From Xanthomonas vasicola (lineage in GTDB: Bacteria; Pseudomonadota; Gammaproteobacteria; Xanthomonadales; Xanthomonadaceae), in the NCBI RefSeq assembly GCF_000772705.2, contig NZ_JSBW02000014.1, positions 1 to 58,672 on the forward strand: 58,672 nt of DNA. The letters are read 5' to 3'. The notes beneath the pieces were generated by a model, which had not been told where the DNA came from, made no database searches, and saw nothing but the letters and a program-made list of their open reading frames with translations. Each line of letters starts with the position of its first letter. Positions within the stretch are counted from its first letter, which is position 1. Shown here one piece after another: positions 10,653-56,552 of this stretch. A program made the position numbers and the translations under genes.

Positions 10653-10983
10653 TCAGGAGGTCTCCGGGGCCGATCCCACGGCCGGGTTGAGTGAAGCGAA
10701 GCCACCATCCTAGCAGGCTTCGAGACAGATGTTCAGTTGTGCGACGGGTAGCGCGGTCTTGCGGTGTCAGTCACCGCGCAACACGACGCGTGGGGGATGC
10801 GCAATCCCAACCTGCACAAGGGTTTGGGCGATTGCGCGCCGCTATCATGCACATCGCGCGCTGCGTGTGTGTGATGTTGCGGTTGCCGTACGGCATTGCA
10901 CGGCCCCATAGCGCGGCGTTGACGGGGCCGCGGTGCCCTGAATGCGAATCCCTGCCCGGCCGCAGGCACGCGCCGCGCCGACC
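10653..10983. other. intergenic stretch without a supported gene
   Basis: About 330 bases between the start of the SRPBCC gene and the end of the response regulator, both on the minus strand. A plus-strand frame (10691 onward) runs into the regulator and has Arg/Cys-rich, non-coding-like composition. The upstream promoter of the SRPBCC gene must lie near 10660-10720, but I see no clear box. Confidence 0.5.
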
Positions 10984-11625
10984 TCAGACCAACTGCAACT
11001 CGAACGCCTTCAGCACCGCGCGGGTGCGGTCGCGTACGCCGAGCTTGGAGAGGATGTTGGAGACGTGATTCTTGATCGTGCCTTCGGCCACGCCCAGCGA
11101 ATTGGCGATTTCCTTGTTAGAAAAGCCGCTCGCCATCAGCCGCAGGATCTCGGTCTCGCGGTCGGTGAGCGGATCCGGCCGATCCAGGCTGACGAACTCG
11201 TTACGCATGTGTTCCAGGCCCGAGAGCAGGCGCTGGGTCACTGCCGGCTGCACCAGCGAGCCGCCGTCGGCCACGGTGCGGATGGCGCCGACCAGCTGTT
11301 CCAGCGAGACGTCCTTGAGCAGATAGCCCTTGGCGCCGGCCTTGAGCCCGGCCAGCACCAATTGGTCGTCGTCGAAGGTGGTCAGGATGATCGTCGGCGG
11401 CAGCGTGCCGTTACGCGAGAGCATCTGCAGCGCTTCCAGGCCGGACATCACCGGCATGCGCATGTCCATCAGCACCACGTCCGGCTGGATCTGCGGAATC
11501 TGCTCCACCGCCTGCTTGCCGTCGGAGGCCTCGGCCACCACTTCGATCCCGTCGTCCAGCGCCAACAGCGAGCGGATCCCCTGGCGCACCAGGGTTTGAT
11601 CGTCGACCAGGCACACACGGATCAT
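10984..11625 (-). CDS. NarL/FixJ-family response regulator
   Basis: A 213-residue regulator with an N-terminal receiver domain (acidic DD at 8-9, phospho-acceptor Asp in PDVVLMDMRMP, Lys in GYLLKD) and a C-terminal LuxR-type helix-turn-helix (LTDRETEILRLMASGFSNKE, then TIKNHVSNILSKL). The ATG at 11625 overlaps the stop of the histidine kinase gene and is preceded by AAGGAG, so the pair is translationally coupled. Targets are unknown. Confidence 0.93.
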   Translation of the reverse strand: MIRVCLVDDQTLVRQGIRSLLALDDGIEVVAEASDGKQAVEQIPQIQPDVVLMDMRMPVMSGLEALQMLSRNGTLPPTIILTTFDDDQLVLAGLKAGAKGYLLKDVSLEQLVGAIRTVADGGSLVQPAVTQRLLSGLEHMRNEFVSLDRPDPLTDRETEILRLMASGFSNKEIANSLGVAEGTIKNHVSNILSKLGVRDRTRAVLKAFELQLV

Positions 11626-12821
11626 CACAACACTCCTTGGGTCACGGCCGCAGGCATCAGTGCCGGCGCGCCTGGAACAGCGATGCGCAGGCCGAAGCCG
11701 TCACCCCGCCGGGTTTGAATCTCGAGCTGCCCACCATACTGGTTCAGCCGCTCGCGCATGCCGCGCAGCCCGTTGCCGGGCGCGACCGCAGCGGCGCCGT
11801 GGCCGTCGTCACGGGCGTCGATCAGCACCGTATCGGCATCGCGGCGTACCTGGATCCACAGGTTGCGCGCGCCGGCATGGCGCACCGCATTGGTGATGAT
11901 TTCCTGGGTACAGCGCAGCAGCACGTGGGCGCGCTCGGGGTCGTCCAGGGTCAGCGGCTGGGCGATATCCAGGTGGATATCCAGCGACGGCACCTGGGTG
12001 ACCAGCGGGCGCAGCGCCGCCTCCAGATCGATGGCGCCGCTGTCGCGCAGATGGCTGACCGCCTCGCGCACATCGGTAAGCAACAGTTTGGCCAGCGTGT
12101 GCGCCTGGCGCACGTGCTCCTGGGCCTGGCCCTCGGTGATGTGGCCTGCCACTTCCAGGTTGAGACTGAGCGCAGTGAGGTGGTGGCCGAGCAGGTCGTG
12201 CAGCTCGCGCGAGATGCGGGTGCGCTCGTTGACGCGCGCGCTCTCGGCCAGCAGCGCGCGGGTGGCGCGCAGTTCGGCGTTGAGCCGGCGCTGCTCTTCG
12301 CGCGCATCGGTCTGCTGGCGGGCCACCAGGCTGGTGACGAAGATGAACATCGAAAAGCCGCCGTACAACAGCGACTGCATCAACGCCGCAAACAGAGTGA
12401 AGTCCGGACGCAGGTAGTAGAACACCGGCAGCACCGCCAGCTGGCTCAGCACCAGCCATAGCACGCCCACGCGCAGCGGCAGCAGCCACGGGATCACCCC
12501 GGCGGCGACCATCATCAGGATGCTGCCGAGCCCGGTTCCGCTCAAGTAGCTCACCGCCAGTGCGCAGATGGTGAGCAGCAACAGGATCAGCCGGTCGTAC
12601 CAGTGCGCGTGCCCTCCGCTGTTCAAGCCGCGGGTCAACCAGAAGTAGCTGGCGCCAAAGCCGATGAAGAATGCCGACATCATGACCGCCTCGGCCACGC
12701 TGCGGTGGTCGCCCTCTTCGGCCGGCGGCCAGTACGTGTACACCAACGGCATGACGATCATCGCCCAGGTGAACAGGCCGGCGAAGCGCAGGACGCGCGT
12801 ATGACTGAGGTATCCCAACAT
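11625..12821 (-). CDS. DesK/NarX-type sensor histidine kinase (HisKA_3)
   Basis: A 398-residue kinase with about five or six membrane helices in residues 10-165, a short coiled coil, the HisKA_3 phosphorylation motif ERTRISRELHDLLGHHLTAL and a compact HATPase_c domain (EIITNAVRHAGA, then GNGLRGMRERL). It pairs with the response regulator that overlaps its stop. The multi-helix sensor with little periplasmic sequence resembles DesK, which senses membrane state; the signal here is not known. Confidence 0.92.
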   Translation of the reverse strand: MLGYLSHTRVLRFAGLFTWAMIVMPLVYTYWPPAEEGDHRSVAEAVMMSAFFIGFGASYFWLTRGLNSGGHAHWYDRLILLLLTICALAVSYLSGTGLGSILMMVAAGVIPWLLPLRVGVLWLVLSQLAVLPVFYYLRPDFTLFAALMQSLLYGGFSMFIFVTSLVARQQTDAREEQRRLNAELRATRALLAESARVNERTRISRELHDLLGHHLTALSLNLEVAGHITEGQAQEHVRQAHTLAKLLLTDVREAVSHLRDSGAIDLEAALRPLVTQVPSLDIHLDIAQPLTLDDPERAHVLLRCTQEIITNAVRHAGARNLWIQVRRDADTVLIDARDDGHGAAAVAPGNGLRGMRERLNQYGGQLEIQTRRGDGFGLRIAVPGAPALMPAAVTQGVL

Positions 12822-13070
12822 GTCCGCATCTTAGGCGTAAGCGACCGCGCTGCCCTCTTGCCGGAAGTCATGCATGCGGGCTGGTGCTTGCGGGTACGGT
12901 CAATGGATATAGGAGCAGCAGCAGCGGCGGTGCTGCTGACGTGGCGATGCCCGCGTTCGCATGCCACGCGCCGGGCAGATCGCGTGCGCCGGGTCGCCGC
13001 TTCAGGCCACGCATGTAATAATCCGACGCAGATCCGATTTCGGGTCGACGCGTTACCTCACGGAGTCCCA

Positions 13071-13667
13071 ATGTCGATCGTCATCCGCGACGTGCGCGAG
13101 CACGAGCTCGATTCCGTCCTGGCCCTGAACAACAATGCCGGATTGGCGATCCTGCCGCTGGATTCAGCCAAACTGCAACGTTTCTATGAGCAGGCCGAAT
13201 ATTTCCGCGTCGCAGAGCGCGACGGCAACCTGGCCGGGTTTCTGGTTGGGTTCGGAAGTGGCAGTGCCCACGACAGCAGCAATTTCGCCTGGTTCCGGGA
13301 CCGTCATCCGGAATTCTTCTACATCGACCGCATCGTGGTCGCCAGCCGCCGCCGCGGTGGTGGCGTCGGGCGGGCGTTCTATGCCGATGTGCAGAGCTAC
13401 ACCGAGCTGCGTTACCCGCAGTTGGCCTGTGAGGTGTTCCTGGACCACGGCGCCGACGCGGCCTTGCTGTTCCATGGCAGCTTCGGCTTCCGCGAGGTTG
13501 GCCAGAACACCATGGCCGATGTGGAAGTGCGCGCCAGCATGCTGATGAAAGACATGTGCAGCTATCCGTGGGTCAAAGAGACCTATGGCGGCAAGTTGCC
13601 CGAAGACTTGCCGTGGGTGGGCCGGCCGCGTCATGCCGCCACCACCAACCCATCGACGGGGAGCTGA
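13071..13667 (+). CDS. GNAT-family N-acetyltransferase
   Basis: A 198-residue protein with the GNAT acetyl-CoA-binding pattern (YIDRIVVASRRRGGGVGRAF) and the following LACEVFLDHGADAALLFHGS strand-helix. The start at 13071 gives the expected N terminus (MSIVIRDVREHELDSVLALN); a longer upstream frame has no coding character. It lies 3 bases before minC and may be co-transcribed with the Min genes. Substrate unknown. Confidence 0.88.
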   Translation: MSIVIRDVREHELDSVLALNNNAGLAILPLDSAKLQRFYEQAEYFRVAERDGNLAGFLVGFGSGSAHDSSNFAWFRDRHPEFFYIDRIVVASRRRGGGVGRAFYADVQSYTELRYPQLACEVFLDHGADAALLFHGSFGFREVGQNTMADVEVRASMLMKDMCSYPWVKETYGGKLPEDLPWVGRPRHAATTNPSTGS

Positions 13668-13670
13668 GTA

Positions 13671-14417
13671 GTGGCAAGTGTGAATGTGGATTTTGAACAG
13701 GCCGGCGAACTGAAGATCGGCCAGGTGGGCATCGCCAACCTGCGCGTGCGCACGCTGGACGTGCCGCGGCTGGTGCAGGAAATGCGCGAGCGCGTGAGCC
13801 GCGCACCCAAGTTGTTCGGCCGCGCCGCGGTGATCCTGGATTTCGGCGGGCTGTCGCAGGTGCCGGACCTGGCGACGGCCAAGGCGCTGTTGGACGGTCT
13901 GCGCGAGGCCGGCGTGCTGCCGGTGGCGCTGGCCTATGGCACCAGCGAGATCGACCTGCTGTCCCAGCAGTTGGGTGTGCCGTTGCTGGCCAAATTCCGC
14001 GCCCAGTACGAGTCGGCCGCGGTGAGCCCGCCACCGCCTCCACCGCCGCCTGCACGTGCCGAACAGGCACCGCCGGCCGCGCGTCCTGCCCCTGGCCGGA
14101 TGCAGCGCACCGCGGTGCGTTCGGGCCAGCAACTGTATGCGGAGAACTGCGACCTGACCGTACTCAGTACGGTGGGTGCCGGGGCCGAGGTCATCGCCGA
14201 CGGCAGCATCCATATCTACGGTACCCTGCGTGGCCGCGCTCTGGCCGGCGCGCAGGGCAACCCTGACGCGCGCATCTTTTGCCGCGACTTCCACGCCGAA
14301 CTGGTCGCCATCGCTGGCCACTACAAGGTGCTGGACGATGTTCCCATGGACCTGCGTGGCAAGGCCGTCCAGGTCTGGCTGGAGCAGGATCAGATCAAGA
14401 TCGCTGCGCTTGATTGA
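13671..14417 (+). CDS. minC: septum site-determining protein MinC
   Basis: A 248-residue inhibitor of FtsZ ring assembly. The N-terminal FtsZ-inhibiting domain (about 1-110) is joined by a Pro/Ala-rich linker that includes an eight-proline run (about 121-128) to the C-terminal beta-helix domain (SGQQLYAENCDLTVLSTVGA, then DGSIHIYGTLRGRALAG), which dimerises and binds MinD. The start is the GTG at 13671, giving MASVNVDFEQ after conversion. First of the minCDE set. Confidence 0.95.
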   Translation: MASVNVDFEQAGELKIGQVGIANLRVRTLDVPRLVQEMRERVSRAPKLFGRAAVILDFGGLSQVPDLATAKALLDGLREAGVLPVALAYGTSEIDLLSQQLGVPLLAKFRAQYESAAVSPPPPPPPPARAEQAPPAARPAPGRMQRTAVRSGQQLYAENCDLTVLSTVGAGAEVIADGSIHIYGTLRGRALAGAQGNPDARIFCRDFHAELVAIAGHYKVLDDVPMDLRGKAVQVWLEQDQIKIAALD

Positions 14418-14452
14418 CGCGGCCCAACCACAGAAATATTCGGAGAAATCCT

Positions 14453-15262
14453 TTGGCTGAAATCATCGTAGTCACCTCCGGCAAGGGCGGCGTCGGCAAG
14501 ACCACCACCAGCGCAAGCCTGGCCTGCGGGCTGGCAAAGCGCGGCAAGAAAGTTGCGGTCATCGACTTCGACGTCGGCCTGCGCAACCTGGACCTGATCA
14601 TGGGCTGCGAGCGGCGCGTGGTGTACGACTTCGTCAACGTTGTGCACGGCGAAGCAACGCTCAAGCAGTCGCTGATCAAGGACAAGCGCTTCGACAACCT
14701 GTACGTGTTGGCTGCCTCGCAAACCCGCGACAAGGACGCGCTGACCCAGGACGGCGTTGAGAAGGTGCTCAAGGAACTGGCCGCCGACGGCTTCGACTAC
14801 ATCGTCTGCGATTCGCCGGCCGGTATCGAAAAAGGCGCGTTCCTGTCGATGTATTTTGCCGACCGCGCAGTGGTGGTGGTCAACCCGGAAGTGTCGTCGG
14901 TGCGCGACTCGGACCGCATCATCGGCCTGCTCGATTCCAAGACCCGCAAGGCCGAAGAAGGCAAGAGCGTGCCGGCGTTCCTGCTGCTGACCCGCTACAG
15001 CCCGGGTCGCGTGGAAGGCGGCGAGATGCTCAGCATCACCGACGTGGAAGAAGTGCTGGGGCTGAAGGCGATCGGTGTGATTCCCGAATCCGGCGACGTG
15101 CTCAATGCCTCCAACAAGGGCGAACCGGTGATCCTGGATGGCGAGTCACCCGCCGGCCAGGCGTATGAAGACGCAGTCGCCCGCATCATGGGCGAGGAGC
15201 GCCCGATGCGATTCACATCCGTGGAGAAGAAAGGCTTCTTCAGCAAGCTGTTCGGAGGGTAA
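14453..15262 (+). CDS. minD: septum site-determining ATPase MinD
   Basis: A 269-residue ParA/MinD ATPase with the deviant Walker A motif [12 protein letters not shown], the switch region DSPAGIE and a C-terminal amphipathic membrane-targeting helix ([13 protein letters not shown]). It recruits MinC to the membrane and oscillates with MinE. The start is the TTG at 14453, giving [13 protein letters not shown], with GGAG eight bases upstream; a longer frame from 14414 is unlikely. Confidence 0.97.
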
Positions 15263-15264
15263 GC

Positions 15265-15522
15265 ATGGGCCTGCTCGATTTTCTCAAGAGCAAGAAGAAC
15301 ACCGCCGAGACGGCCAAGAACCGCCTGCAGATCATCATTGCGCAGGAGCGCAACCACCGCGGCGGGCCGGATTACCTGCCGCTGATGCAGCGCGAATTGC
15401 TGGAAGTGATCAAGAAATACGTCAACATCGATGCAGATGCGGTACGTGTGGATCTGGTCAAGGATGGCGAACACGACGTGCTGGATATCTCGGTCGCCTT
15501 GCCGGAAGACGGCGACAAGTAA
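15265..15522 (+). CDS. minE: cell division topological specificity factor MinE
   Basis: An 85-residue protein with the membrane-binding and MinD-stimulating N-terminal helix ([20 protein letters not shown]), the [10 protein letters not shown] segment and the C-terminal topological domain. It stimulates MinD ATPase and sets the Min oscillation. It starts two bases after the minD stop and is followed by a strong hairpin. Confidence 0.97.
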
Positions 15523-15528
15523 GCGCAA

Positions 15529-15560
15529 ACAACGGCACCGCGTTCGCACGGTGCCGTTGT
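15529..15560 (+). terminator. hairpin terminator after minE
   Basis: A perfect 12-base-pair stem (15529-15540 with 15549-15560, ACAACGGCACCG) with an 8-base loop lies 6 bases after the minE stop. There is no long T-run, only GTTGT at its end, so efficiency is uncertain. Confidence 0.65.
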
Positions 15561-15590
15561 TGCATGTGACCCGACCGCGAGCGATTGCGC

Positions 15591-16082
15591 GTGACCACCA
15601 CCCCCACTGCAACACCCACCGCTGCCGATGTTCTGTGCGTGGCCGATATCGGCCTGGACGCACCCGCCGCGCTGCTCGCGCGCTATGGCTTGCGCCTGCA
15701 CCGTGTGGAATCGGGCGCGGCGATTCCTGGCAGTTTCTGGGGCGAACCGGAAGCCGGCATCATCGGCTGCGATGTGTATGTGCGCGACGACACGCCGGTG
15801 CATTCGCTCCTGCACGAAGCGGGGCACTTGATCGTGCTGCCCGCGGAAAAACGCGCCGCGGTCCATACAGACGCCACCGATTCGGTGGAGGAAGAAGACG
15901 CGACCTGTTACCTGCAGATCCTGCTGGCAGAGCAGTTGCCCGGCGTGGGCAGCGCGCGCCTGATGGCCGACATGGACAGCTGGGGCTATACATATCGGCT
16001 GGGCTCCACGCGCGCCTGGTTCGAGCAGGACGCGGAGAATGCGCGCAGCTGGTTGCACGCGCGCGGCTTGTTGCCGGCCTGA
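15591..16082 (+). CDS. small HEXXH-containing protein, putative zinc metallopeptidase-like
   Basis: A 163-residue protein of unknown function. It contains LLHEAGHLIV, a textbook HEXXH zinc-peptidase helix, at about residues 74-83, and an acidic SVEEEDATCYLQ segment about 20 residues later that could supply a third ligand. No signal peptide is seen. The GTG at 15591 is the most plausible start; a TTG at 15585 is in the same frame. It is downstream of minCDE but separated from them by a terminator-like hairpin. Confidence 0.65.
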   Translation: MTTTPTATPTAADVLCVADIGLDAPAALLARYGLRLHRVESGAAIPGSFWGEPEAGIIGCDVYVRDDTPVHSLLHEAGHLIVLPAEKRAAVHTDATDSVEEEDATCYLQILLAEQLPGVGSARLMADMDSWGYTYRLGSTRAWFEQDAENARSWLHARGLLPA

Positions 16083-16235: not shown

Positions 16236-17525
16236 TTAGTGAACCGCTGCGGTGGCGCCGGACAGATCCAGCGTCGCCACCGTGCCCTGCCCTGCGTTGG
16301 AATCCAGCTGCAGATGCCAGCCGAGGTGTTCGCATAGCCGCCCGATCAATTCCAGCCCGATGCCACTGCCCTGGCGTGCGTTGCCGCGTGCCAAGCGCAT
16401 GTAGATGGCGCTGATCTCTTCCGGCGCCATGCCGTGGCCCGGGTCGGCAATGCGCACCACGCCGGGCGCAGATAGCGAGATGCGAATGATGCCGCGGTCG
16501 CTGTTTTCGATGGCGTTGCGCAGCAGGTTGCCGATGGCGGTCTGCACGATGGCAACCGGCGCAACCAGGCTGCACGGCGGCAGCGGGTCCACGATCAGCT
16601 GCAGATCCTTGTCGGCGCACAGGTGCGTGTGGTCGGTCACGATATCCGGCAGCAGCTGGTCCAGCCGCAACGAGTCGCTGCTGCGCACCAGCCGGCTCGG
16701 GTCCTTGGCCAGCACCAGCAGCAAAGTGATCAACTGTTCGACCGAGGCACTGGTCTGCCCGATGCGCTGCAACTGATGGCGTACTACCGGCGGCGTACCG
16801 GGCTGCTCCAGCGCCAACTCCACCGCATTGCCGATTACCGCGATGGGCGTGCGTAATTCGTGGCTGGTGCTGTCGATGAAGGCGCGCTCGCGGTCCACAA
16901 ACTGGCTATTGCGCTCGAGATAATTGTTGAGCGCATCGGCAATCACATAAAGCTCGGCGCTGCCCTGCGGCCCGACCGCAATCTGCTGCGCGCGTTGCCC
17001 CGGACGTAATGCGCCGATGTCGCGTGCCAGTTCCACCAGCGGGCGCACCAACCGGGCCATCGCGTAGGTGCCCATCAACAAGGTGATGCCAATCAGCGCG
17101 ATACCAGCGGCCAGCATCCAGCGGGTCAGGAATTTTTCCAGTGCTTCGAAGTCGGAGATGTCCAGCACCAGCGCTAGGCGCCCGGCATGCGCGGTGTCGC
17201 GCACCATCACCGCACTCTGGCGGCCGGCGATTTCCAGGCCGTCGTGCAAGCCTGGATGCAGGCTGCGCAATACCGGCGGTGTGCGCGCGACGTCGTCGAT
17301 GCGGTACAGCCGCAAGGTGTCCGAATCCTGCCAGTGGTAATCCGGATTCTGCACGCTGCGCTCGAGAATGCTGTCCAGTTCGGAATTCAGCAGTGAGCGC
17401 CACACGCCGTGTTCGGCACGTTCGTGCAGGTACTGCGCGGTACCGAACACCGCCAGCGTCATCAATAGCGTGTAGCCGAACAACCACACCAGCACGCGGC
17501 GACCCAGGGGACGCTGCTTAGACAT
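16236..17525 (-). CDS. colS: sensor histidine kinase, ColS/VgrS-like
   Basis: A 429-residue kinase with two membrane helices (about 10-30 and 135-155) flanking a periplasmic sensor domain, a HAMP-like segment (MARLVRPLVELARDIGALRP), the phospho-acceptor motif FIDSTSHELRTPIAVIG, and an HATPase domain with NLLRNAIENS and GSGIGLELIGRL. The start is the ATG at 17525, overlapping the end of the regulator gene by 8 bases. ColS-type sensors respond to metal and envelope stress; in this genus the pair is also called VgrRS. The naming rests on the partner regulator and on the eptA neighbourhood, and is moderately sure. Confidence 0.85.
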   Translation of the reverse strand: MSKQRPLGRRVLVWLFGYTLLMTLAVFGTAQYLHERAEHGVWRSLLNSELDSILERSVQNPDYHWQDSDTLRLYRIDDVARTPPVLRSLHPGLHDGLEIAGRQSAVMVRDTAHAGRLALVLDISDFEALEKFLTRWMLAAGIALIGITLLMGTYAMARLVRPLVELARDIGALRPGQRAQQIAVGPQGSAELYVIADALNNYLERNSQFVDRERAFIDSTSHELRTPIAVIGNAVELALEQPGTPPVVRHQLQRIGQTSASVEQLITLLLVLAKDPSRLVRSSDSLRLDQLLPDIVTDHTHLCADKDLQLIVDPLPPCSLVAPVAIVQTAIGNLLRNAIENSDRGIIRISLSAPGVVRIADPGHGMAPEEISAIYMRLARGNARQGSGIGLELIGRLCEHLGWHLQLDSNAGQGTVATLDLSGATAAVH

Positions 17526-18234
17526 CGCTGCTGTCGCCTGCGCCAGGCGCTTCGGCCGCATCCAGCTGCGCCAGCCGGTAGCCGAGCCGGGGCAAGGTGT
17601 GGATCAGTTTTTCTGCGAACGGGCCATCAACGCTGCGGCGTAGCTCGTAGATGTGCGAACGCAGCATGTCGCCGTCGGGCGGGTCGTCGCCCCACAGCGA
17701 TTGCTCCAGGCGTTGCCGCGTCACCGCCGCCGGGCTGTCCTGCATCAGCACTTCCAGCAACTTGCGGCAGGCCGGGTACAGATGCAGCACCTGGCCGGCG
17801 CGGGTGGCTTCCAGCGTGGCCAGGTCCAGGCGCAGGTCGGCCACTTGCAGCAGCTTGCCGCGCCGACGGCCATGTGCGCGCGCCAACAAGGCTTCGATGC
17901 GCACTTCCAGCTCGGGTAGCGCGAACGGTTTGGTCAGGTAGTCGTCGGCGCCAGCGCGAAAGCCGGCGATCTTGTCCGGCAGTTCATCGCGCGCGGTGAG
18001 CATGATCACCGGCAACTCGGATTGGTGCTGTTCGCGTAGGCGGCGCAGCACTTCCGGCCCGTCCATGCGCGGCATCATCCAGTCCAGGATCAGCGCATCG
18101 TAGTGCTGGGTGGTGGCCAGGTGCAGGCCGGTGATGCCATCGGGCGCGGCGTCCAGGGTATGTCCGCGCGCTTCGAAGTACTCGAACAGGTTGGCAACCA
18201 TATTGCGGTTGTCTTCAATGACCAGCAGCCGCAT
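17518..18234 (-). CDS. colR: OmpR-family response regulator, ColR/VgrR-like
   Basis: A 238-residue regulator: receiver domain (MRLLVIEDNRNMVANLFEYF, phospho-Asp in YDALILDWMMPRMDG, Lys in YLTKPFAL) and a C-terminal winged helix (RQRLEQSLWGDDPPDGDMLR, then LIHTLPRLGYRLA). The segment WGDDPPDGDMLRSHIYELR closely resembles ColR of pseudomonads. The ATG at 18234 is chosen because the receiver starts there. ColR is known to control eptA-type lipid A modification genes, and such genes lie divergently a few kilobases away. Confidence 0.9.
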   Translation of the reverse strand: MRLLVIEDNRNMVANLFEYFEARGHTLDAAPDGITGLHLATTQHYDALILDWMMPRMDGPEVLRRLREQHQSELPVIMLTARDELPDKIAGFRAGADDYLTKPFALPELEVRIEALLARAHGRRRGKLLQVADLRLDLATLEATRAGQVLHLYPACRKLLEVLMQDSPAAVTRQRLEQSLWGDDPPDGDMLRSHIYELRRSVDGPFAEKLIHTLPRLGYRLAQLDAAEAPGAGDSSDV

Positions 18235-18458
18235 GAGCGGGGTTCCAGGGCGGCCAGGCAGGCACAGTGTGCGCATCCTAACCGAGGCCAGCCAAACACA
18301 GCCGGTATCGCCGGTGCGGCCTTCCAATCGGTTGCGCTCCAATCCCCCGCACAACTGCGATGCCTGCGCTGCCCACTTCGATGCGGCGCACTTTGTTCCG
18401 ACAAATTTCCGACCCACTTGCCAGATAGTGTCTGCCCGCATTTACTCAGGGCGTGCGC

Positions 18459-22714: not shown

Positions 22715-22825
22715 TTGGCAGCGCCTGCCACAAAGCCCGCACCAGTGGATGCGTGGCGGGCGTTGCCCTTGCCCTGAAACCCGGCGCGCTCTAGCCTTCG
22801 CCGGACTTCACTGCAAGGACCACCC

Positions 22826-24844
22826 GTGAATCCTCGTTTGCTGTTGCTGGCGTTGGCCGTGGCTGCCGGCACCCTGAGCTTGTCGGCCTGCCGCCGGGAT
22901 GCGGCACCGCCGGCCAAACCTGTCGCAACCAAGACCGCGCCGGAGGAAAGCGCCGACCAGTTCGTTGCGCGTATCAGCGCCGACTACAAGGCAGCCTATC
23001 CGGAAACCACCGCCGCGCAGTGGCTTTCGTCGACCTATATCAACAGCGATTCGCAATTGCTTGCGGCCAAGGCCAACGAGCGCTCGCTGGCGCAGTTGGA
23101 TCGCTGGATCGAACAATCCAAGCAGTACGTCGGCACACCGATGTCGGCCGACAGCGCGCGTGCGCTGCAGTTGCTGAAATTGATGAGCGCCCTGCCCGCA
23201 CCGCGTGACCCGGCCAAACTGGCCGAACTCACCCGCATCGCCGCCAAGATGGAAGGCGACTACGGCGCCGGCAGTTACTGCGTGGGCGACGGCGAGCAGC
23301 GCCGCTGCCGCCAGCTCGGTGAGTTGGAGCAAGTGCTGGCCAGCAGCCGCGACTACAACGAACAACTCGACGCATGGAAGGGCTGGCACAGCACCGCACA
23401 GCCGATGCGCAAGGATTATCAACGCTTTGTCGAGCTCGCCAACGAAGGCGCGCGCGGACTCGGCTTCGCCGACGTCGGGGTGCTCTGGCGCAGCGGCTAC
23501 GACATGCCGCCGGCGCAACTGGCCAGCGAAACTGATCGTTTGTGGGAACAGGTCAAACCGCTGTACACGCAGTTGCAGTGCTATGCGCGCGGCAAACTCG
23601 ATACGCAATACGGCAAGGACAAGGGCGAGGTCGCCGGCGGCCTGTTGCCGGCGCATCTGATGGGCAATATGTGGCAGCAGGACTGGAGCAATCTGTGGGA
23701 TCTGCTGCAGCCCTACCCCGGTGCCGGCGATCTGGACATCACCTCGGCGCTGGAAAAGCAGTATCAGGGCAACCTCACTGCGGTGCTGGCACGCAACACC
23801 GGCGGCGATGGAGGCGCGGCCGCACGCTTCAACGCCGAACGCGAAGCGCAACTGCGCACCGCCAAACAGATGACCGAGCGCGCGCAGGATTTCTACACCT
23901 CGCTCGGCATGCCCAAACTGCCGGACACCTATTGGCAGCGCTCGCAGTTCATCAAACCGCTGGACCGCGATGTGGTCTGCCACGCCAGTGCCTGGGACAT
24001 GAACATGGGCGGCGAACCAAACCAGAACATCGATGCGGACGTGCGCACCAAGATGTGCATTAAACCCACCGAAGAAGACTTCACCACCATCTACCACGAG
24101 TTGGGCCACATCTATTACGACCTGGCCTATAACCCGTTGCCGCCGCTGTTCCAGAACGGCGCCAACGATGGGTTTCACGAAGCGATCGGCGACACCATCG
24201 TGCTGGCGATGACGCCCAAGTATCTGCAGTCGATCGGCTTGGTGGGCGAACAACAAACCGGCCGTGAGTCGTTGATCAATTCGCAGATGCGCATGGCGCT
24301 GAGCAAGGTGGCGTTCCTGCCGTTCGGCCTGATGATCGACCGCTGGCGCTGGGGCGTGTTCGACGGCTCGATCACGCCCGAGCATTACAACCAGGCCTGG
24401 TGGGAACTGAAAGCCAAGTATCAGGGCGTGGCGCCGGTGAGCGCACGCGGCGAAGACTTCTTCGACCCCGGCGCCAAGTACCACGTGCCCGGCAATACAC
24501 CGTACACGCGCTATTTTTTGGCGCATATCCTGCAATTTCAGTTCTATAAAGGCTTGTGCCAGGCCGCCGGGCATCAAGGCCCGCTGTACGAATGCAGCTT
24601 CTACGGCAATAAGGACGCCGGGCAAAAGTTCTGGTCGATGCTGCAGCGTGGCTCCAGCCAACCGTGGCAGACCACGTTGAAGGAACTCACCGGCAGCGAC
24701 AAGCTCGACGCCGGCCCGATGCTGGAGTATTTCGCGCCGATGAGCGAATGGCTGAAGCAGCAGAATCAGGGGCAGATGTGTGGATGGCAGGCAACCGCTG
24801 CCACTCCAGCTACCGCGACAACTGCAGCTGCTGCAGCGCGGTGA
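22826..24844 (+). CDS. M2-family peptidyl-dipeptidase (angiotensin-converting enzyme homologue), lipoprotein
   Basis: A 672-residue protein with a lipoprotein signal (lipobox LSAC near residue 22). The mature part is an ACE-like M2 zinc peptidase: TTIYHELGHIYYDLAYNPLP with zinc His424 and His428 and catalytic Glu425, then GFHEAIGDTI with the third ligand Glu452, and a late YTRYFLAHILQFQFYKG segment. Full-length single-domain bacterial ACE homologues are known from Xanthomonas. It releases C-terminal dipeptides, probably in the periplasm or at the outer membrane. Monocistronic, ending in a hairpin. Confidence 0.92.
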   Translation: MNPRLLLLALAVAAGTLSLSACRRDAAPPAKPVATKTAPEESADQFVARISADYKAAYPETTAAQWLSSTYINSDSQLLAAKANERSLAQLDRWIEQSKQYVGTPMSADSARALQLLKLMSALPAPRDPAKLAELTRIAAKMEGDYGAGSYCVGDGEQRRCRQLGELEQVLASSRDYNEQLDAWKGWHSTAQPMRKDYQRFVELANEGARGLGFADVGVLWRSGYDMPPAQLASETDRLWEQVKPLYTQLQCYARGKLDTQYGKDKGEVAGGLLPAHLMGNMWQQDWSNLWDLLQPYPGAGDLDITSALEKQYQGNLTAVLARNTGGDGGAAARFNAEREAQLRTAKQMTERAQDFYTSLGMPKLPDTYWQRSQFIKPLDRDVVCHASAWDMNMGGEPNQNIDADVRTKMCIKPTEEDFTTIYHELGHIYYDLAYNPLPPLFQNGANDGFHEAIGDTIVLAMTPKYLQSIGLVGEQQTGRESLINSQMRMALSKVAFLPFGLMIDRWRWGVFDGSITPEHYNQAWWELKAKYQGVAPVSARGEDFFDPGAKYHVPGNTPYTRYFLAHILQFQFYKGLCQAAGHQGPLYECSFYGNKDAGQKFWSMLQRGSSQPWQTTLKELTGSDKLDAGPMLEYFAPMSEWLKQQNQGQMCGWQATAATPATATTAAAAAR

Positions 24845-24856
24845 CATATATTGCTT

Positions 24857-26873: not shown

Positions 26874-29030
26874 TCAGTCGGCGGCGGCCGAGCGCTCCTG
26901 CAGCCGCTGCCAAGCGGCGATCGGCTGATCGCTCACCACGCGTCCGCGTTCCAAAGTAATGACACGTGCCGCCATGCCCACGGTTTCGCGCCGATGCGCC
27001 ACGATGATCCGAGTGACCTGCATCGCCTGGATGGCGCGATTGACGCGGTGTTCGTTCATGACGTCCAGATGGCTGGTTGCCTCGTCCAGCACCAGGATGC
27101 GCGGCGACCTATACAGGGCGCGCGCCAGCAAGACGCGTTGCCGCTGCCCGCCCGACAACCCGGTGCCCGCCTCGCTCAACAACGAGGCGTAGCCGAGCGG
27201 CATCTGCTCCACCTCCTGGTGCACGCCGGCGATGCGTGCACAACGTTCGATCTGCGCCTGATCCGGCTCCGGGTCGAAGAAACTGATGTTCTCGCTGACC
27301 GATCCGGTGAACAGCAGATCGTCCTGCATCACCGTGCCGACGATGGCGCGATAGTGCGCCAGCGCCGCGTCGGCCAGCGGGCGCCCGCCGATCTTCACTT
27401 GCCCAGCACTGGGTTTCAACAGTCCGAGGATCAACTTCACCAGGGTGGTCTTGCCGCACCCGGACGGACCGGTGATGGCCACGCATTCCCCGCTGGCGAT
27501 GCGCACGCTGACGTCTTCGAGCACCGCCGGCGTATCGTCGGCATAGCGGAAGCCGATGCCGCACAGTTCGATGGTGGTGTCGTTCCAGGCCGGTGCATCG
27601 ATGCGCTGGCCGGCCTCCTCCCGCGGCTGATGGACGATGTCGGCCACCCGCTCCAGATGGACGCGCAACAGGCGGAACTCCACCAGGCGATCGATCAGCT
27701 CGGACAAGCGCGTGGCGAACTGCTCGCGATAGGCCATGAACGCAAGCAACATGCCGAGCGAAAGCTGCGCGCGCAGGATCGCGAACGCGGCGAGCCAGAT
27801 CACAAGCACCCGCTCGCATCCGAACAGCAGGAGCTTGATTGACGACTGCCAGACCTCGCCCTGCGCAAGACGCAGTTGTGCATTGGTCTGTTCGGCCAGC
27901 AGATGGGTCCAATCCATGCGCCGCACCTGCTGGCGACCGAACAGCCGCACGCCCTGGATGCCACGTACGCTTTCCAACAGATGGGTGTGCTGGCGCGCGT
28001 CCCACAACAACTGCTCGGCGGCGGCTTCGCGCATCCGCCCCAGCCACAGCAACCGCGTCGCTGCATACAGCGCCACCGCCACCAGCGTGATCGCACTGAG
28101 GCCGACGCTGTAGACCAGCATCAGGCCGAGGGTGCCGACCACCAGCACGCCATCCACCAGCGTCTGGGTGAATCCGGTCGTCAAGGTGCGTTGCACCTGC
28201 GTGATCGAGGCGAAGCGCGACTGGATGCCACCGAGGTGACGTTTCTCGAAATACGCCAATGGGAGCGAGAGCAGGTGCGCAAACACCTGTCCCATCCATT
28301 GAAAGCCCAACTGCGCCGACACGCTGGCGATCAACCATCCGCGCAGCAGGCCGATGCATGCTTGCAGTACCACCAGCAACAGGAACCCGGCGCCAAGGAC
28401 ATGGATCAGCCCGATGTCGGCCGACGGCACCGCCTGATCGATGATCCACTGCAGTTGGAACGGCATCCCCAGGCTGAGCACCTCGAGCGCGAACGCCAAG
28501 GCGAGCACCTGCCAGACCGCCCGTCCAAGCCCGTGGACACGACCGATCAACGAGGACAACGCCACTGCCGGCGCCGCAGATTGCGGACGGAAGTCGGCAG
28601 TCGGGCTGAGTTCCAGCGCGATTCCGGAGAAATGGCGAGCGAATTCGCCGGGCGTCAGGCTCCGTGGCCCGCTGGCCGGATCGTGGATCTGCAGACGGTG
28701 GGCGCCCACCCGCTTGAGCACGACGAAATGATTCAGATCCCAGTGCACGATGCAGGGCAACTGCAGATCCGGCAGCGCGTCCATTTCCAGCCGCAGCGCG
28801 CGCGGCTGCAGACCGAGCGCCTGCGCAATCGCGACCAGATTGGCCAGGTTGGTTCCCTGCCGCGACAGCAGGAACCGGCGGCGCAGTTCGGCTAGGCCGA
28901 TGTGGCAACCGTGATGGTGGGCGATCATGGCCATGGCCGCCAATCCGCATTCGCCGACTTGCCCCTGCAGGATCATTGGCAAGGCACGCACGCCGGACGC
29001 TCGGCGCAGCTGCGCCCACCAGCGGCTCAT
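26874..29030 (-). CDS. raxB: RaxB: peptidase-containing ABC transporter that matures and exports RaxX
   Basis: A 718-residue bacteriocin-type exporter (PCAT). The N-terminal C39 peptidase domain (about 15-140) has an intact QGQVGECGLAAMAM active site with Cys28, HWDLNHFVVLKR with the catalytic His, and IHDPASG. Six membrane helices follow (about 165-430), then an ATPase with Walker A GPSGCGKTT, signature LSGGQRQR and Walker B ILVLDEATS. PCATs cut after a double-glycine and export the peptide. The ATG at 29030 overlaps the stop of raxA. All catalytic residues are present, so the protein should be active. Confidence 0.95.
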   Translation of the reverse strand: MSRWWAQLRRASGVRALPMILQGQVGECGLAAMAMIAHHHGCHIGLAELRRRFLLSRQGTNLANLVAIAQALGLQPRALRLEMDALPDLQLPCIVHWDLNHFVVLKRVGAHRLQIHDPASGPRSLTPGEFARHFSGIALELSPTADFRPQSAAPAVALSSLIGRVHGLGRAVWQVLALAFALEVLSLGMPFQLQWIIDQAVPSADIGLIHVLGAGFLLLVVLQACIGLLRGWLIASVSAQLGFQWMGQVFAHLLSLPLAYFEKRHLGGIQSRFASITQVQRTLTTGFTQTLVDGVLVVGTLGLMLVYSVGLSAITLVAVALYAATRLLWLGRMREAAAEQLLWDARQHTHLLESVRGIQGVRLFGRQQVRRMDWTHLLAEQTNAQLRLAQGEVWQSSIKLLLFGCERVLVIWLAAFAILRAQLSLGMLLAFMAYREQFATRLSELIDRLVEFRLLRVHLERVADIVHQPREEAGQRIDAPAWNDTTIELCGIGFRYADDTPAVLEDVSVRIASGECVAITGPSGCGKTTLVKLILGLLKPSAGQVKIGGRPLADAALAHYRAIVGTVMQDDLLFTGSVSENISFFDPEPDQAQIERCARIAGVHQEVEQMPLGYASLLSEAGTGLSGGQRQRVLLARALYRSPRILVLDEATSHLDVMNEHRVNRAIQAMQVTRIIVAHRRETVGMAARVITLERGRVVSDQPIAAWQRLQERSAAAD

Positions 29031-30265
29031 CGCAGCGTGCCGTACACGTTGGACAGCGGCTCGAACGCCCACTGCGAGAAACGCCGCCATTCCAGTGCCA
29101 GCGTGCCCTGCACGCGCATGCCCGGTCGCAGGACCGCCATGCGTCCTGCACGCAGCGCGGCATCCCCGGCCAGGCGCACCCGCACGCGGTATAACGGTTC
29201 GCTCGCCGACGCGGAGTCGACCCGCGCCGGCTCGGGCGCCGCGGCGATCTCGACCACCCGCCCGGCAAACTGACCGTAATGCTGGTAGGGCAAGGCATCG
29301 AAGCGCAGTTGCACCGGCATTCCGGGGCCGATGAGCCCGGCGGCCCCGGAGGGCGCGTACAACACGACCTCGGTCGCTATGGACGTCGGCAGCAGATCGG
29401 CCAGCCGTTGTCCCTGCACAACCGCCTGCCCTCGCTGCAGCGGCCGCAGCGCCATGCGCCCGGCACGCGGCGCGCGCACTTCCCAACGCGACGCGGCAGC
29501 CTGCTCGATCGCCGCACGCCGGTCCTCTTGCAGGCCGGCACCGGCTATCGCCAATTGCTGGCGCAAGCTGGACGGCAATTGCTGCAACTCGGCCTGGGCC
29601 TGCGCAAGCGCATCGGCCAAGGCCATACGTTCGCGCTCCACTTCTAGGGTATGCGTGCGTTGATCGAGCACGTCGGCCTGCTTCTCGTCGACGAATTGCT
29701 GACTGACCAGGCCACGCGTCAAGGCGGTGCGATAACGCTGCTCGATCGATTGGGTCAGCTGCTGCCGATGGCGCAGCAAGTCCAGCTCGGCGTCGACCTG
29801 CTGCAGGCGATCACGCAGGCCGGCCAAGGCCCGCGCAGCCGCCTGCTGCTGCATGCGCCCCTGGGCACGCAGCTGCGCCATCGCCTCGACGGCCAGGCGC
29901 TGCTGCTCAGCCAGCACCGCAGCGGCACGCCGGGTCGGCCGCCCGCGATCGTCGCGATGCTCGGCCTCCAATACAAACAGCATCTGGCCAGCAGCGACGA
30001 CCTGGCCCTGCACGGCGCCGACCTGCACCACCACACCCGACTGCGGCGTGGTGAGTGCGATCATTCCGTCTGCCGGGACAACCGTGCCATGCAAGGTCTT
30101 GCTACGGGCGAAGCCCAGACGGAAGAATCCGATCAGCAGCAGGATCACCGCTGCCATCAGCAGGCCTACGCACCAACGCAGCGCGCGATGCTGGCGCAGC
30201 ACCACCGGCCCGAGCCGACTGCGCTGCCGGTAGTCCATTGCCTCGCGTCGGAACAGTGTCGTCAT
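29027..30265 (-). CDS. raxA: RaxA: HlyD-family membrane fusion protein
   Basis: A 412-residue periplasmic adaptor: one N-terminal membrane helix (about 32-52), a barrel-sandwich half motif (TTPQSGVVVQVGAVQGQVV), a long coiled-coil hairpin rich in Ala/Gln/Leu (about 115-260), the second lipoyl half (WEVRAPRAGRMALRPLQRGQ) and a C-terminal beta-barrel domain. It links RaxB to a TolC-like outer-membrane channel, which is not in this window. Start at 30265 (ATG); the end overlaps raxB by four bases. Confidence 0.93.
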   Translation of the reverse strand: MTTLFRREAMDYRQRSRLGPVVLRQHRALRWCVGLLMAAVILLLIGFFRLGFARSKTLHGTVVPADGMIALTTPQSGVVVQVGAVQGQVVAAGQMLFVLEAEHRDDRGRPTRRAAAVLAEQQRLAVEAMAQLRAQGRMQQQAAARALAGLRDRLQQVDAELDLLRHRQQLTQSIEQRYRTALTRGLVSQQFVDEKQADVLDQRTHTLEVERERMALADALAQAQAELQQLPSSLRQQLAIAGAGLQEDRRAAIEQAAASRWEVRAPRAGRMALRPLQRGQAVVQGQRLADLLPTSIATEVVLYAPSGAAGLIGPGMPVQLRFDALPYQHYGQFAGRVVEIAAAPEPARVDSASASEPLYRVRVRLAGDAALRAGRMAVLRPGMRVQGTLALEWRRFSQWAFEPLSNVYGTLR

Positions 30266-30356
30266 CCGCCCGCAGCCGCCGACGCCCGGCCGTGCTGCCC
30301 GCCTGCTCGGTAGTGCCGTCGGCGCGCCGCCGTGCGTTGCCAAGCCACGTGTCTGC

Positions 30357-31160
30357 TCATACCAGCAGGGCTCCATGCGAGGGCTCGCTTTCCCAGAAGG
30401 CAAGCTCCTGCAGCCGCTCGAACAGCGCCGGCGGCAACACACTGCGCCGGGGGACGTAATGCACCCCGCGACGGACACGATGCAGGCCTGGCATCTGCAG
30501 TGCGGTATCGAAGCGATCGGCCTCGGCCTGGACACCGGCATAATCGTGCGCGAACCCCGGCAGTTGCAGGAAGGCATAGACCTGCTCCATCGCCTGCGCC
30601 GGCCGCTGTGCCAGTGTGTCGTAGCGCAACAGCAGCAGGCGATCGGCATGGTCGCCGTAGAACGCCTGGCGCAACCCATCCAGCGCATAGCCGACCACGC
30701 CGCGCGGTGCGGTCAGCAGGTCAGCGCGCATCGAAACCGAGTCTTCCGGGTCGTAGCCGAACACCGCCGACAAGCGCAGGGGCTGGGTCTGCGCCAGGCG
30801 CTCGAAGCTATCGACGACCCAGCCGACATCGCGCACGCAACAGATGATGCGGCTGTGCGGGAACAGCGTGGCCAGACCCGACAGGCGACTGCACCAGGCG
30901 CGATTGGTATCGAACACCGTGCCAAGCCCCTGGCGATCCCGGTAATAGGCGTCGAATACCGAACGCAACAGCCGCGACCGCTGCGCGTCGTCGATCTGCA
31001 CGTTGGAGGGATGTTCCTCGCTCATGCCCATCAGCATCGCCGCATACAGCCGCGCGACCGGCGAGGTGACATCGGCATGCACTCGCGGGTTCTGCCGCAG
31101 TAATGCGGCCAGCAACGAAGAGCCTGCACGCGGCAGCCCGGAGATGAAATGGTAGTCCAC
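30357..31160 (-). CDS. raxST: RaxST: tyrosylprotein sulfotransferase
   Basis: A 267-residue sulfotransferase that uses PAPS to sulfate the RaxX tyrosine. The 5'-phosphosulfate-binding loop is at the N terminus (ISGLPRAGSSLLAALLRQNP); the 3'-phosphate-binding region (RIICCVRDVGWVVDSFERL) and a C-terminal part with YVPRRSVLPPALFERL follow. There is no ATG at the right place: the GTG at 31160, preceded by AGGGGAAG, gives M-DYHFISGLPRAG, the N terminus known for RaxST. It heads the raxST-raxA-raxB set and is divergent from raxX. Confidence 0.93.
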   Translation of the reverse strand: MDYHFISGLPRAGSSLLAALLRQNPRVHADVTSPVARLYAAMLMGMSEEHPSNVQIDDAQRSRLLRSVFDAYYRDRQGLGTVFDTNRAWCSRLSGLATLFPHSRIICCVRDVGWVVDSFERLAQTQPLRLSAVFGYDPEDSVSMRADLLTAPRGVVGYALDGLRQAFYGDHADRLLLLRYDTLAQRPAQAMEQVYAFLQLPGFAHDYAGVQAEADRFDTALQMPGLHRVRRGVHYVPRRSVLPPALFERLQELAFWESEPSHGALLV

Positions 31161-31594
31161 GTCGCGCTTCCCCTGTCCGATGCTGGTCGGCGGCGGCATG
31201 CCGGCTGAACGCATCGCTGACCAAGCTTGCATGGTGCGCCACAGCGCACGCGGACACGCTGCGCAAATACGCTGCGCTTTGCGAATGCCGACGCTCCGGC
31301 CATGCCATGGCAGCGCTTGCGGTGACCGGCATCGCACTGCCTTGTACCGCCGCGCACTTGGCAGATGCGACGTTCGTTGCCGCGCACACACCCTCGTGCG
31401 CCGGTGATGTGTCGCTCCGAAGACCGCGCACGCTGGTGCGCATGGTCGTACTCCGCGCGGCAGGGCCAACGGTCCAGCAGTCCAGACATATTTAGTCTCA
31501 CCGGCCACCGGGCAGATGGCCGAGCGGTCACGCCGCCGTCCCTTCGGGCAGCGTGACGCTGCGTACGAAGGGCACAACCTGCGAGGACGTCAAC
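31161..31594. promoter_or_regulatory. divergent intergenic region between raxST and raxX
   Basis: 434 bases between the two divergent rax transcripts. Minus- and plus-strand frames here have no coding character. The plus strand shows an AT-rich island (CATATTTAG near 31487-31495) within otherwise GC-rich sequence, which could be the -10 region of the raxX promoter, but no clear -35 can be assigned. The Shine-Dalgarno GAGG at 31583-31586 serves raxX. Confidence 0.45.
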
Positions 31595-31786
31595 ATGGAA
31601 CTATTGAAAAAATCGCCATCCAATGGCGCGGGATCGCTCCAGCGGTCGGCCGGCGCCAAGGGCCGGCTAGAGCCGCTGGACCAGCGTCTGTGGAAGCATG
31701 TCGGCGGTGGGGACTATCCCCCGCCGGGCGCGAATGACCACCACGACCCAACACAACAGCCGCCGCCCAAAAAAGGGAAACCTTGA
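31595..31786 (+). CDS. raxX: RaxX: sulfated-peptide precursor
   Basis: A 63-residue precursor whose leader contains AKGRLEPLDQRLWKHVGG and whose core begins GDYPPPGAN, matching the RaxX region recognised by rice XA21. Tyr41 in GGGDYPPPG is the residue that RaxST sulfates in X. oryzae. The GG pair just before GDY is the expected RaxB cleavage site. The C-terminal tail (DHHDP, then TQQPPPKKGKP) differs from the X. oryzae form, which has PKHDP at 48-52. The start is the ATG at 31595 with GAGG upstream. The mature peptide mimics plant PSY hormones, as established in X. oryzae; activity of this variant is inference. Confidence 0.95.
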   Translation: MELLKKSPSNGAGSLQRSAGAKGRLEPLDQRLWKHVGGGDYPPPGANDHHDPTQQPPPKKGKP

Positions 31787-31954: not shown

Positions 31955-32150
31955 CTAGCCAGGCAACACGGTGGGAGAAGCGGCACTGCCGCTGCCGAAG
32001 GCGCAACAGCCCGTAATCGCTCAGGCCCGATACCATCCGCAGTACAACTCTGGAGAGACCGGCCGATGCCGGCGCCGAAGGGGCACGAAACGCAGGCAGG
32101 CCATGCGCCTTGCCGCGTTTTTAAACTCTCAGGCAAAAGGACAGAGGGGC
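31955..32150 (+). promoter_or_regulatory. tandem glycine riboswitch (gcvT type) in the gcvP leader
   Basis: Two aptamer cores follow one another. The first has GGGAGAAGC, GCCGAAGGCGCAACAG and CGCTCAGGCCC (about 31973-32030). The second has CTGGAGAGACCGG, GCCGAAGGGGCACG and the near-consensus AAACTCTCAGGCAAAAGGAC (32122-32141). The tandem gcvT aptamers bind glycine and turn on glycine cleavage genes, here gcvP, whose ATG lies 104 bases after the second aptamer. No terminator stem is evident between aptamer 2 and the ATG, so control at translation is possible. Confidence 0.93.
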
Positions 32151-32253
32151 GCGAGGAAGACCGTCGCTGCGGCAGGTCGTGGTGCGCACATGCGCGTCAT
32201 GCCGGTTGCGGTGCGGGTCGACCATTCGTCTGCACCTGCCCCGGATGCCCGCC

Positions 32254-56412: not shown

Positions 56413-56552
56413 GAGCGGCTAACAAAATGTAGCGAGCAGTCGTCAGGTAGGCGTGGACGGCGCGGAGTAACCGCGGTGTACGAGTGGTACATGCCGCACC
56501 GAGCACCGGCCGCGCCCGTCTGGCGGCTGCGCAGTAATTTTGTTAGTTGCTC
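56413..56552 (+). mobile_element. MITE copy 2 (140 bp) abutting the outer-membrane protein gene
   Basis: A 140-base element with ends GAGCGGCTAACAAAA and, inverted, GAGCAACTAACAAAA. It is flanked by TTA (56410-56412 and 56553-56555). It matches copy 1 in reverse orientation over its whole length. Its right-hand TTA is the TAA stop codon of the gene that ends at 56553. It encodes nothing; in RNA the inverted ends could form a stem. Confidence 0.75.

What the first reader, a model, noticed from the sequence alone, without database searches (positions are those of the whole stretch)
26874..31786. Complete raxX-raxSTAB cluster for a tyrosine-sulfated, plant-hormone-mimicking peptide
All four parts are intact: RaxX precursor with Tyr41 and GG cleavage site, RaxST with its PAPS loop, RaxA adaptor, and RaxB with C39 Cys28 and full ATPase motifs. 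The layout (raxX divergent, between gcvP and an MFS gene) is the known Xanthomonas arrangement. Intact catalytic residues throughout imply the strain makes and exports a sulfated peptide.
Basis: partly seen in the sequence, partly recalled or inferred. Interest (0 to 1): 0.85.

Follow-up and report, generated by a model that had tools for sequence, protein, structure and literature searches.

The report
Known Xanthomonas raxX-raxSTAB sulfated-peptide cluster
This stretch holds the already described Xanthomonas gene set raxX-raxST-raxA-raxB, which is predicted to make, sulfate, trim and export a small peptide that likely imitates a plant growth hormone (PSY); all four genes read through intact, and the arrangement is ordinary for the Xanthomonas species that carry it.

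Summary
Window 26874-31786 encodes four uninterrupted genes: raxX (31595-31786, +), raxST (30357-31160, -, likely GTG start, 267 aa), raxA (29027-30265, -) and raxB (26874-29030, -), between a glycine riboswitch with gcvP and the mfsX transporter gene. RaxX matches the curated model RaxX_RiPP (109.7 bits, cut-off 40). All 7 solved-structure relatives of RaxST at E<=1 are tyrosine sulfotransferases. RaxB aligns with C39-peptidase exporters, catalytic residues included. Two one-mismatch PIP boxes stand between raxX and raxST in 8 of 8 regions examined (window included), so HrpX control is likely.

This is the cluster and site described by Liu et al. 2019 (PMC6637879); the genome is probably X. 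vasicola, one of their six lineages. The exported peptide is predicted to be D40-P63, Tyr41 sulfated. It resembles plant PSY hormones but has Asp48, where Pro is needed for XA21 recognition.

Side results: X. dyei, X. cucurbitae and X. prunicola also carry the cluster (not named in that paper's main text; unread supplements may list them). X. cucurbitae RaxX has a displaced tyrosine, a second GG and no PSY resemblance above shuffles: the only unusual thing here.

The parts
31595..31786 (+). raxX, 63-aa precursor; predicted leader 1-39, predicted product DYPPPGANDHHDPTQQPPPKKGKP with Tyr41
   Evidence: translation; NCBIfam NF038382 RaxX_RiPP 109.7 bits; leader register. The database copy P0003 uses TTG 31604 instead (60 aa); ATG 31595 aligns with the other species
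30357..31160 (-). raxST, predicted tyrosylprotein sulfotransferase, 267 aa from GTG (frame open upstream to ATG 31232)
   Evidence: Pfam Sulfotransfer_3; 7 of 7 PDB relatives at E<=1 are protein-tyrosine sulfotransferases; start
29027..30265 (-). raxA, HlyD-type periplasmic adaptor, 412 aa
   Evidence: Pfam HlyD_3 1.6e-15; 71-92% identical to seven relatives of the genus in aligned stretches
26874..29030 (-). raxB, C39-peptidase ABC exporter, 718 aa; overlaps raxA by 4 bases
   Evidence: Pfam C39, ABC_membrane, ABC_tran; alignment to 4ry2 at 3.6e-88; motifs
31373..31397 (+). PIP-like box facing raxX (one mismatch)
   Evidence: 8 of 8 regions examined; no zero-mismatch box in this region
31261..31285 (-). 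PIP-like box facing raxST (one mismatch)
   Evidence: 8 of 8 regions examined; no zero-mismatch box in this region
32040..32154 (+). glycine riboswitch of gcvP (right flank)
   Evidence: Rfam RF00504, 65.9 bits
32254..35187 (+). gcvP (right flank)
   Evidence: TIGR00461, 1443 bits
25343..26596 (-). mfsX, Bcr/CflA-type MFS transporter (left flank); frame open to 26674, relatives align mostly from residue 27
   Evidence: TIGR00710 over cut-off; starts in relatives

Best explanation
The region is a complete raxX-raxSTAB cluster of the known Xanthomonas kind, whose products are predicted to sulfate RaxX on Tyr41, cut off its 39-residue leader and export a 24-residue peptide that likely acts as a mimic of the plant PSY hormones. 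Shown by sequence: the four intact genes, their motifs, order and site, and two conserved PIP-like boxes between raxX and raxST. Inferred: HrpX switches both transcripts on in the plant; RaxST uses PAPS to sulfate Tyr41; the C39 domain of RaxB cuts after Gly39; RaxB, RaxA and a TolC-type protein encoded elsewhere export DYPPPGANDHHDPTQQPPPKKGKP; plant PSY receptors would bind it. With Asp48 it is predicted not to trigger rice XA21. The genome is probably X. vasicola.
For: RaxX_RiPP match; RaxST relatives in PDB are tyrosine sulfotransferases; RaxB C39 residues and ATPase motifs; same order and site in 8 of 8 other clusters read; predicted peptide closer to nine PSY peptides than shuffles (7 of 1000 reach the best score, 0 of 1000 the mean), not so for twelve RGF peptides (395 and 522 of 1000); leader register in 8 of 8 intact precursors; PIP-like pair in 8 of 8 regions; one APS kinase and one TolC over cut-off in the genome. 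Published for Xoo: sulfation, GG cleavage, export by RaxB, HrpX activation (PMC8872720, passages and sections 11-12) and root growth by seven variant peptides (PMC6637879).
Against: Nothing here shows expression, sulfation or export. The PIP-like boxes are imperfect, and the strict pattern is no commoner in the window than in shuffles (9 against 6.5) and absent between raxX and raxST. AXO1947 (PMC6637879) shows that open rax genes can be dysfunctional. The species is inferred, not named by any search.
Confidence: 0.93

Rival explanations
1. The genes are intact but the pathway is silent or inactive in this strain, through missense changes or lack of expression.
For: Xoo AXO1947 has open raxX and raxST that are dysfunctional by missense changes (PMC6637879); no expression data here.
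Against: The motifs are kept and the PIP-like pair is conserved.
Confidence: 0.05
2. The cluster is a double-glycine bacteriocin system whose sulfotransferase modifies an antibacterial peptide rather than a hormone mimic.
For: RaxB and RaxA rank high on bacteriocin-export models TIGR03796 and TIGR03794.
Against: Both are far below those models' cut-offs (481 against 853 bits; 71 against 156). The peptide matches RaxX_RiPP and PSY peptides.
Confidence: 0.01

Closest known systems
raxX-raxSTAB of Xanthomonas oryzae pv. oryzae and five other lineages (Liu et al. 2019, PMC6637879)
   Same: Same four genes, order, divergent raxX, and site between the gcvP riboswitch and mfsX; Tyr41; GG leader
   Different: RaxX allele: 63 aa, Asp48 instead of Pro48, tail DPTQQPPPKKGKP; otherwise no structural difference found
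RaxX of X. vasicola (P0006, labelled pv. zeae)
   Same: Shares the start MELLKKSPSNG and the end KKG-P
   Different: DYAPPGSNDRHDPPKPPPKKGNP instead of DYPPPGANDHHDPTQQPPPKKGKP
Plant PSY peptide hormones
   Same: DY at the start, N at position 8, HDP at 11-13; similarity above shuffles
   Different: Bacterial precursor with a double-glycine leader; longer, different tail
C39-peptidase bacteriocin exporter 4ry2 (PCAT1, name recalled)
   Same: Peptidase, membrane and ATPase domains align over residues 19-700
   Different: Gram-negative setting with a RaxA adaptor; the cargo is a sulfated peptide
Eukaryotic tyrosylprotein sulfotransferases TPST1/TPST2
   Same: Only PDB relatives of RaxST at E<=1; 5' phosphosulfate loop aligns
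   Different: Weak similarity (best 7.7e-5); bacterial

Membership tests
raxX-raxSTAB cluster | raxX, raxST, raxA and raxB all present and intact | tested here: met
raxX-raxSTAB cluster | Located between gcvP with its riboswitch and mfsX, raxX divergent from raxSTAB | tested here: met
raxX-raxSTAB cluster | RaxX with double-glycine leader and Tyr41 in a PSY-like segment | tested here: met
raxX-raxSTAB cluster | RaxST with PAPS-binding loop | tested here: met
raxX-raxSTAB cluster | RaxB with C39 peptidase and ABC exporter domains | tested here: met
raxX-raxSTAB cluster | PIP boxes before raxX and raxST (as reported in Xoo) | tested here: inconclusive
   one-mismatch pair in 8 of 8 regions; no perfect box
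raxX-raxSTAB cluster | Sulfated, processed peptide secreted | not testable with these tools
   needs mass spectrometry
XA21-activating RaxX (group A) | Pro44 and Pro48 both present | tested here: not met
   Pro44 present, position 48 is Asp (requirement in PMC6637879)

The most novel reading that the evidence does not exclude
The raxSTAB machine is a general loader of sulfated peptides whose cargo can be re-aimed at another plant receptor: in X. cucurbitae the same cluster at the same site carries a RaxX whose predicted exported part (DAPHGGDYPPMEYNKPPRNP) has a displaced DY, a second acidic-Tyr pair and no PSY resemblance above shuffles, and may imitate another sulfated hormone family such as RGF/GLV. 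The window's own peptide is an ordinary PSY-type member.
Probability: 0.15. Interest if true: 0.6.

Novelty: already known. Interest (0 to 1): 0.2.

Why it matters
An intact cluster puts this genome among the RaxX carriers and gives an exact peptide to test (D40-P63, Asp48). The comparison adds three carrier species not named in the main text of the 2019 survey, and one divergent RaxX (X. cucurbitae) that gives a direct test of whether every RaxX peptide is a PSY mimic.

Tried and rejected
RaxX outside Xanthomonas. A profile search of 369 genomes of the class matched only the window's own genome; none of the other carriers known matched, so the sample presumably did not hold them. A motif scan (GG, 0-2 residues, D/E-Y, frames of 35-220 residues) over loci L039-L116, which include the 53 RaxST-homologue loci outside Xanthomonas, found RaxX only in genome G282; the hits in L052 and L088 do not look like RaxX. 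RaxST homologues are common elsewhere: Dyella, mycobacteria, Acetobacteraceae and others; 22 of 297 genomes of the family, of which 18 at 49% identity or less; 1630 proteins at E<=1e-30 among the 7997 candidates scored. This agrees with Liu et al.

RGF/GLV mimicry by X. cucurbitae RaxX. Suggested by eye (KPPRNP against HPPKNN), but 166 and 176 of 1000 shuffles do as well (best and mean score), so it is not supported. PSY resemblance was not above shuffles either (840 and 510 of 1000), whereas each of the six other RaxX peptides tested exceeded PSY shuffles (0-7 of 1000 best, 0 of 1000 mean). The peptide was scored from its DY on, not from the predicted cut.

Recent foreign origin by composition: uninformative; the four rax genes have 63-69% GC, the window 63%, the flanks 64-66%.

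Mistakes of my own. The gyrB tree and the gyrB column for prunicola, maliensis, axonopodis and phaseoli are void because minus-strand loci were not turned; one search replaces them. In one search the G282 row was cut slightly out of frame, which does not matter for a nucleotide tree. One search found no matches because of a file-naming slip; one search repeats it.

Species by name: the window's own records may be left out of the named collection, so X. vasicola is inferred from the RaxX allele.
Full report
What is there. The window carries four open genes at 26874-31786. raxX runs rightwards (31595-31786, 63 aa). raxST, raxA and raxB run leftwards: raxST 30357-31160 from a GTG, raxA 29027-30265, raxB 26874-29030. 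raxA and raxB overlap by 4 bases; raxST and raxA are 91 bp apart. The raxST frame stays open upstream to ATG 31232. I prefer GTG 31160: four database relatives (P0019-P0022) are 267 aa long, AGGGGAAG stands just upstream, and it leaves a 434-bp control region against 431 bp published for Xoo. Against this, the closest database entry, P0018, is 291 aa long. To the right lie the glycine riboswitch and gcvP; to the left a Bcr/CflA-type MFS gene. Further left are a histidine kinase and response regulator pair (16236-18441), a PMT-family glycosyltransferase and an EptA-type transferase, which fits the gcvP-minCDE neighbourhood with raxRH, arnT and eptA in PMC8306577 (passages); minCDE itself was not looked for.

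Identity of the parts. RaxX matches NCBIfam RaxX_RiPP at 109.7 bits, cut-off 40, and no Pfam family. RaxST matches Pfam Sulfotransfer_3 and no NCBIfam family; all 7 distinct PDB sequences it reaches at E<=1 are protein-tyrosine sulfotransferases, the best at 7.7e-5, with GLPRAGSS on GVPRSGTT. RaxB aligns over residues 19-700 with the exporter 4ry2 at 3.6e-88, with Cys28, His101 and Asp117 on its Cys, His and Asp (that these are the C39 catalytic residues is recalled). The genome has one APS kinase and nine TolC-family matches, one over the cut-off, so PAPS supply and an outer-membrane channel are available.

The peptide. In 8 of 8 intact precursors (window, six species of the genus, G282), a cut after the last glycine of GGG puts Val at -4, Trp at -7 and Leu at -12. 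A cut one residue earlier puts His or Lys at -4, and Pro at -12 in seven of eight, though -7 is then still hydrophobic. The -4/-7/-12 rule is recalled knowledge of double-glycine leaders. The result agrees with the published prediction that mature RaxX starts at residue 40 (PMC6637879). The predicted product is DYPPPGANDHHDPTQQPPPKKGKP. Against nine Arabidopsis PSY peptides (listed in PMC11534595, passages), 7 of 1000 shuffles reach its best score and 0 of 1000 its mean; against twelve RGF/GLV peptides, 395 and 522 of 1000. Position 48 is Asp; PMC6637879 finds Pro44 and Pro48 both required for XA21, so XA21 activation is not predicted.

Control. No perfect PIP box lies between raxX and raxST; the strict pattern (spacer 13-17) has 9 matches in the window against 6.5 expected. 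With one mismatch and a 15-base spacer, each of the 8 intergenic regions examined (window, euvesicatoria, prunicola, maliensis, axonopodis, dyei, cucurbitae, G282; X. phaseoli left out) has one site facing raxX and one facing raxST at matching places; 300 single-base shuffles of the window region give 0.14 one-mismatch sites on average (spacers 14 and 16 were scanned too, and dyei has one extra site). PMC8872720 (section 11) reports PIP boxes before both genes in Xoo and activation by HrpX. HrpX control here is likely, not shown.

Distribution. 8 of 35 genomes of the genus, the same eight, have both RaxST and RaxX. One of 20 genomes of a sister genus group has RaxX too (G282), probably X. translucens or close kin: its RaxST is 79% identical to the window's, that of X. 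translucens 80%. Of 30 gcvP loci returned (from 35 genomes), 7 have rax and 23 do not, and in 23 of 23 mfsX begins to align 379-506 bp from the gcvP start. The main text of PMC6637879 does not contain the words dyei, cucurbitae or prunicola. Library searches found two reviews with raxX and cucurbitae, in separate contexts, and no paper holding raxX or raxSTAB with dyei or prunicola. The supplements of PMC6637879, and Table S2 of PMC8306577, which covers every named species in 41 genomes, could not be read and may list them. NCBI already annotates the X. dyei genes as rax. I therefore claim no first sighting.

History. Cluster DNA of the window is 92-93% identical to that of euvesicatoria, prunicola, maliensis, axonopodis and phaseoli, 83% to dyei, 78% to cucurbitae and 76% to G282. 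gyrB gives 94, 94, 87, 94, 94, 92, 92 and 87% in the same order. So maliensis has a near cluster in a distant genome, as Liu et al. reported, while dyei and cucurbitae have distant clusters in near genomes. Between prunicola and euvesicatoria the cluster (95.4%) is closer than gcvP (90.7%) or mfsX (93.8%). This fits repeated lateral exchange at this site, the published view; faster change in dyei and cucurbitae is not excluded, and no formal test was run.

Species. Among the 16 RaxX proteins found, the start MELLKKSPSNG is shared only with P0006, labelled X. vasicola pv. zeae; the KKG-P end is shared with P0006 and with P0003, the window's own cluster, which is shown without a name and starts at an internal TTG. 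The genome is therefore probably X. vasicola (about 0.8), a lineage already in Liu et al.

Verdict. Observation confirmed; interpretation supported; system, site and probably lineage already known. The one unusual relative is X. cucurbitae RaxX (L038:9379-9555, minus strand): leader conserved, GGGDAPHGGDYPPMEYNKPPRNP instead of GGGDYPPPGAN..., 36% identity to the window, no PSY or RGF resemblance above shuffles, and one database copy, P0009, two member sequences.

Papers: PMC6637879, parts 1-3 of 8 and passages; PMC8872720, sections 11-12 and passages; PMC8306577, PMC11534595, PMC12448352, PMC12942842 and PMC11292268, passages only. Luu et al. 2019 was not held.

Noticed in passing
L038:9379-9555 (minus strand), X. 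cucurbitae CFBP2542: Divergent RaxX: conserved leader, then GGGDAPHGGDYPPMEYNKPPRNP; a second GG, Tyr displaced by six residues, a second acidic-Tyr pair, no PSY or RGF resemblance above shuffles.
   Followed up: partly
L037 (X. phaseoli ATCC 49119) 9492-15844: Frames of raxX, raxST, raxA and mfsX are interrupted in this assembly while raxB is open; several breaks within 6 kb and a genome only 90% complete suggest sequencing errors, not tested.
   Followed up: no
L116:7919-14449 (G000:C53): RaxA-like (32%) and RaxB-like (49%) paralogues in the window's genome, resembling the PctAB system said to compensate partly for RaxAB in Xoo (PMC12448352 passage). The RaxB-like frame ends at 635 aa although the match runs on past it.
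   Followed up: partly
52390-52465 (+) and 56417-56492 (-): Two copies of the Xanthomonas small RNA sX9 on opposite strands, 4 kb apart.
   Followed up: no
22808-24847 (-) and 22826-24844 (+): Two fully overlapping long frames on opposite strands; the minus-strand protein has no Pfam match, the plus-strand one was not searched.
   Followed up: no
P0012 and P0013 (database proteins): 70-residue RaxX forms from metagenome-type sources with a long tail ending SPYYKPPHHHG; species unknown.
   Followed up: no
P0008 (database protein): A RaxX of X. axonopodis pv. vasculorum labelled as plasmid-borne although its longest contig is 4.8 Mb; probably a mislabelled chromosome.
   Followed up: no
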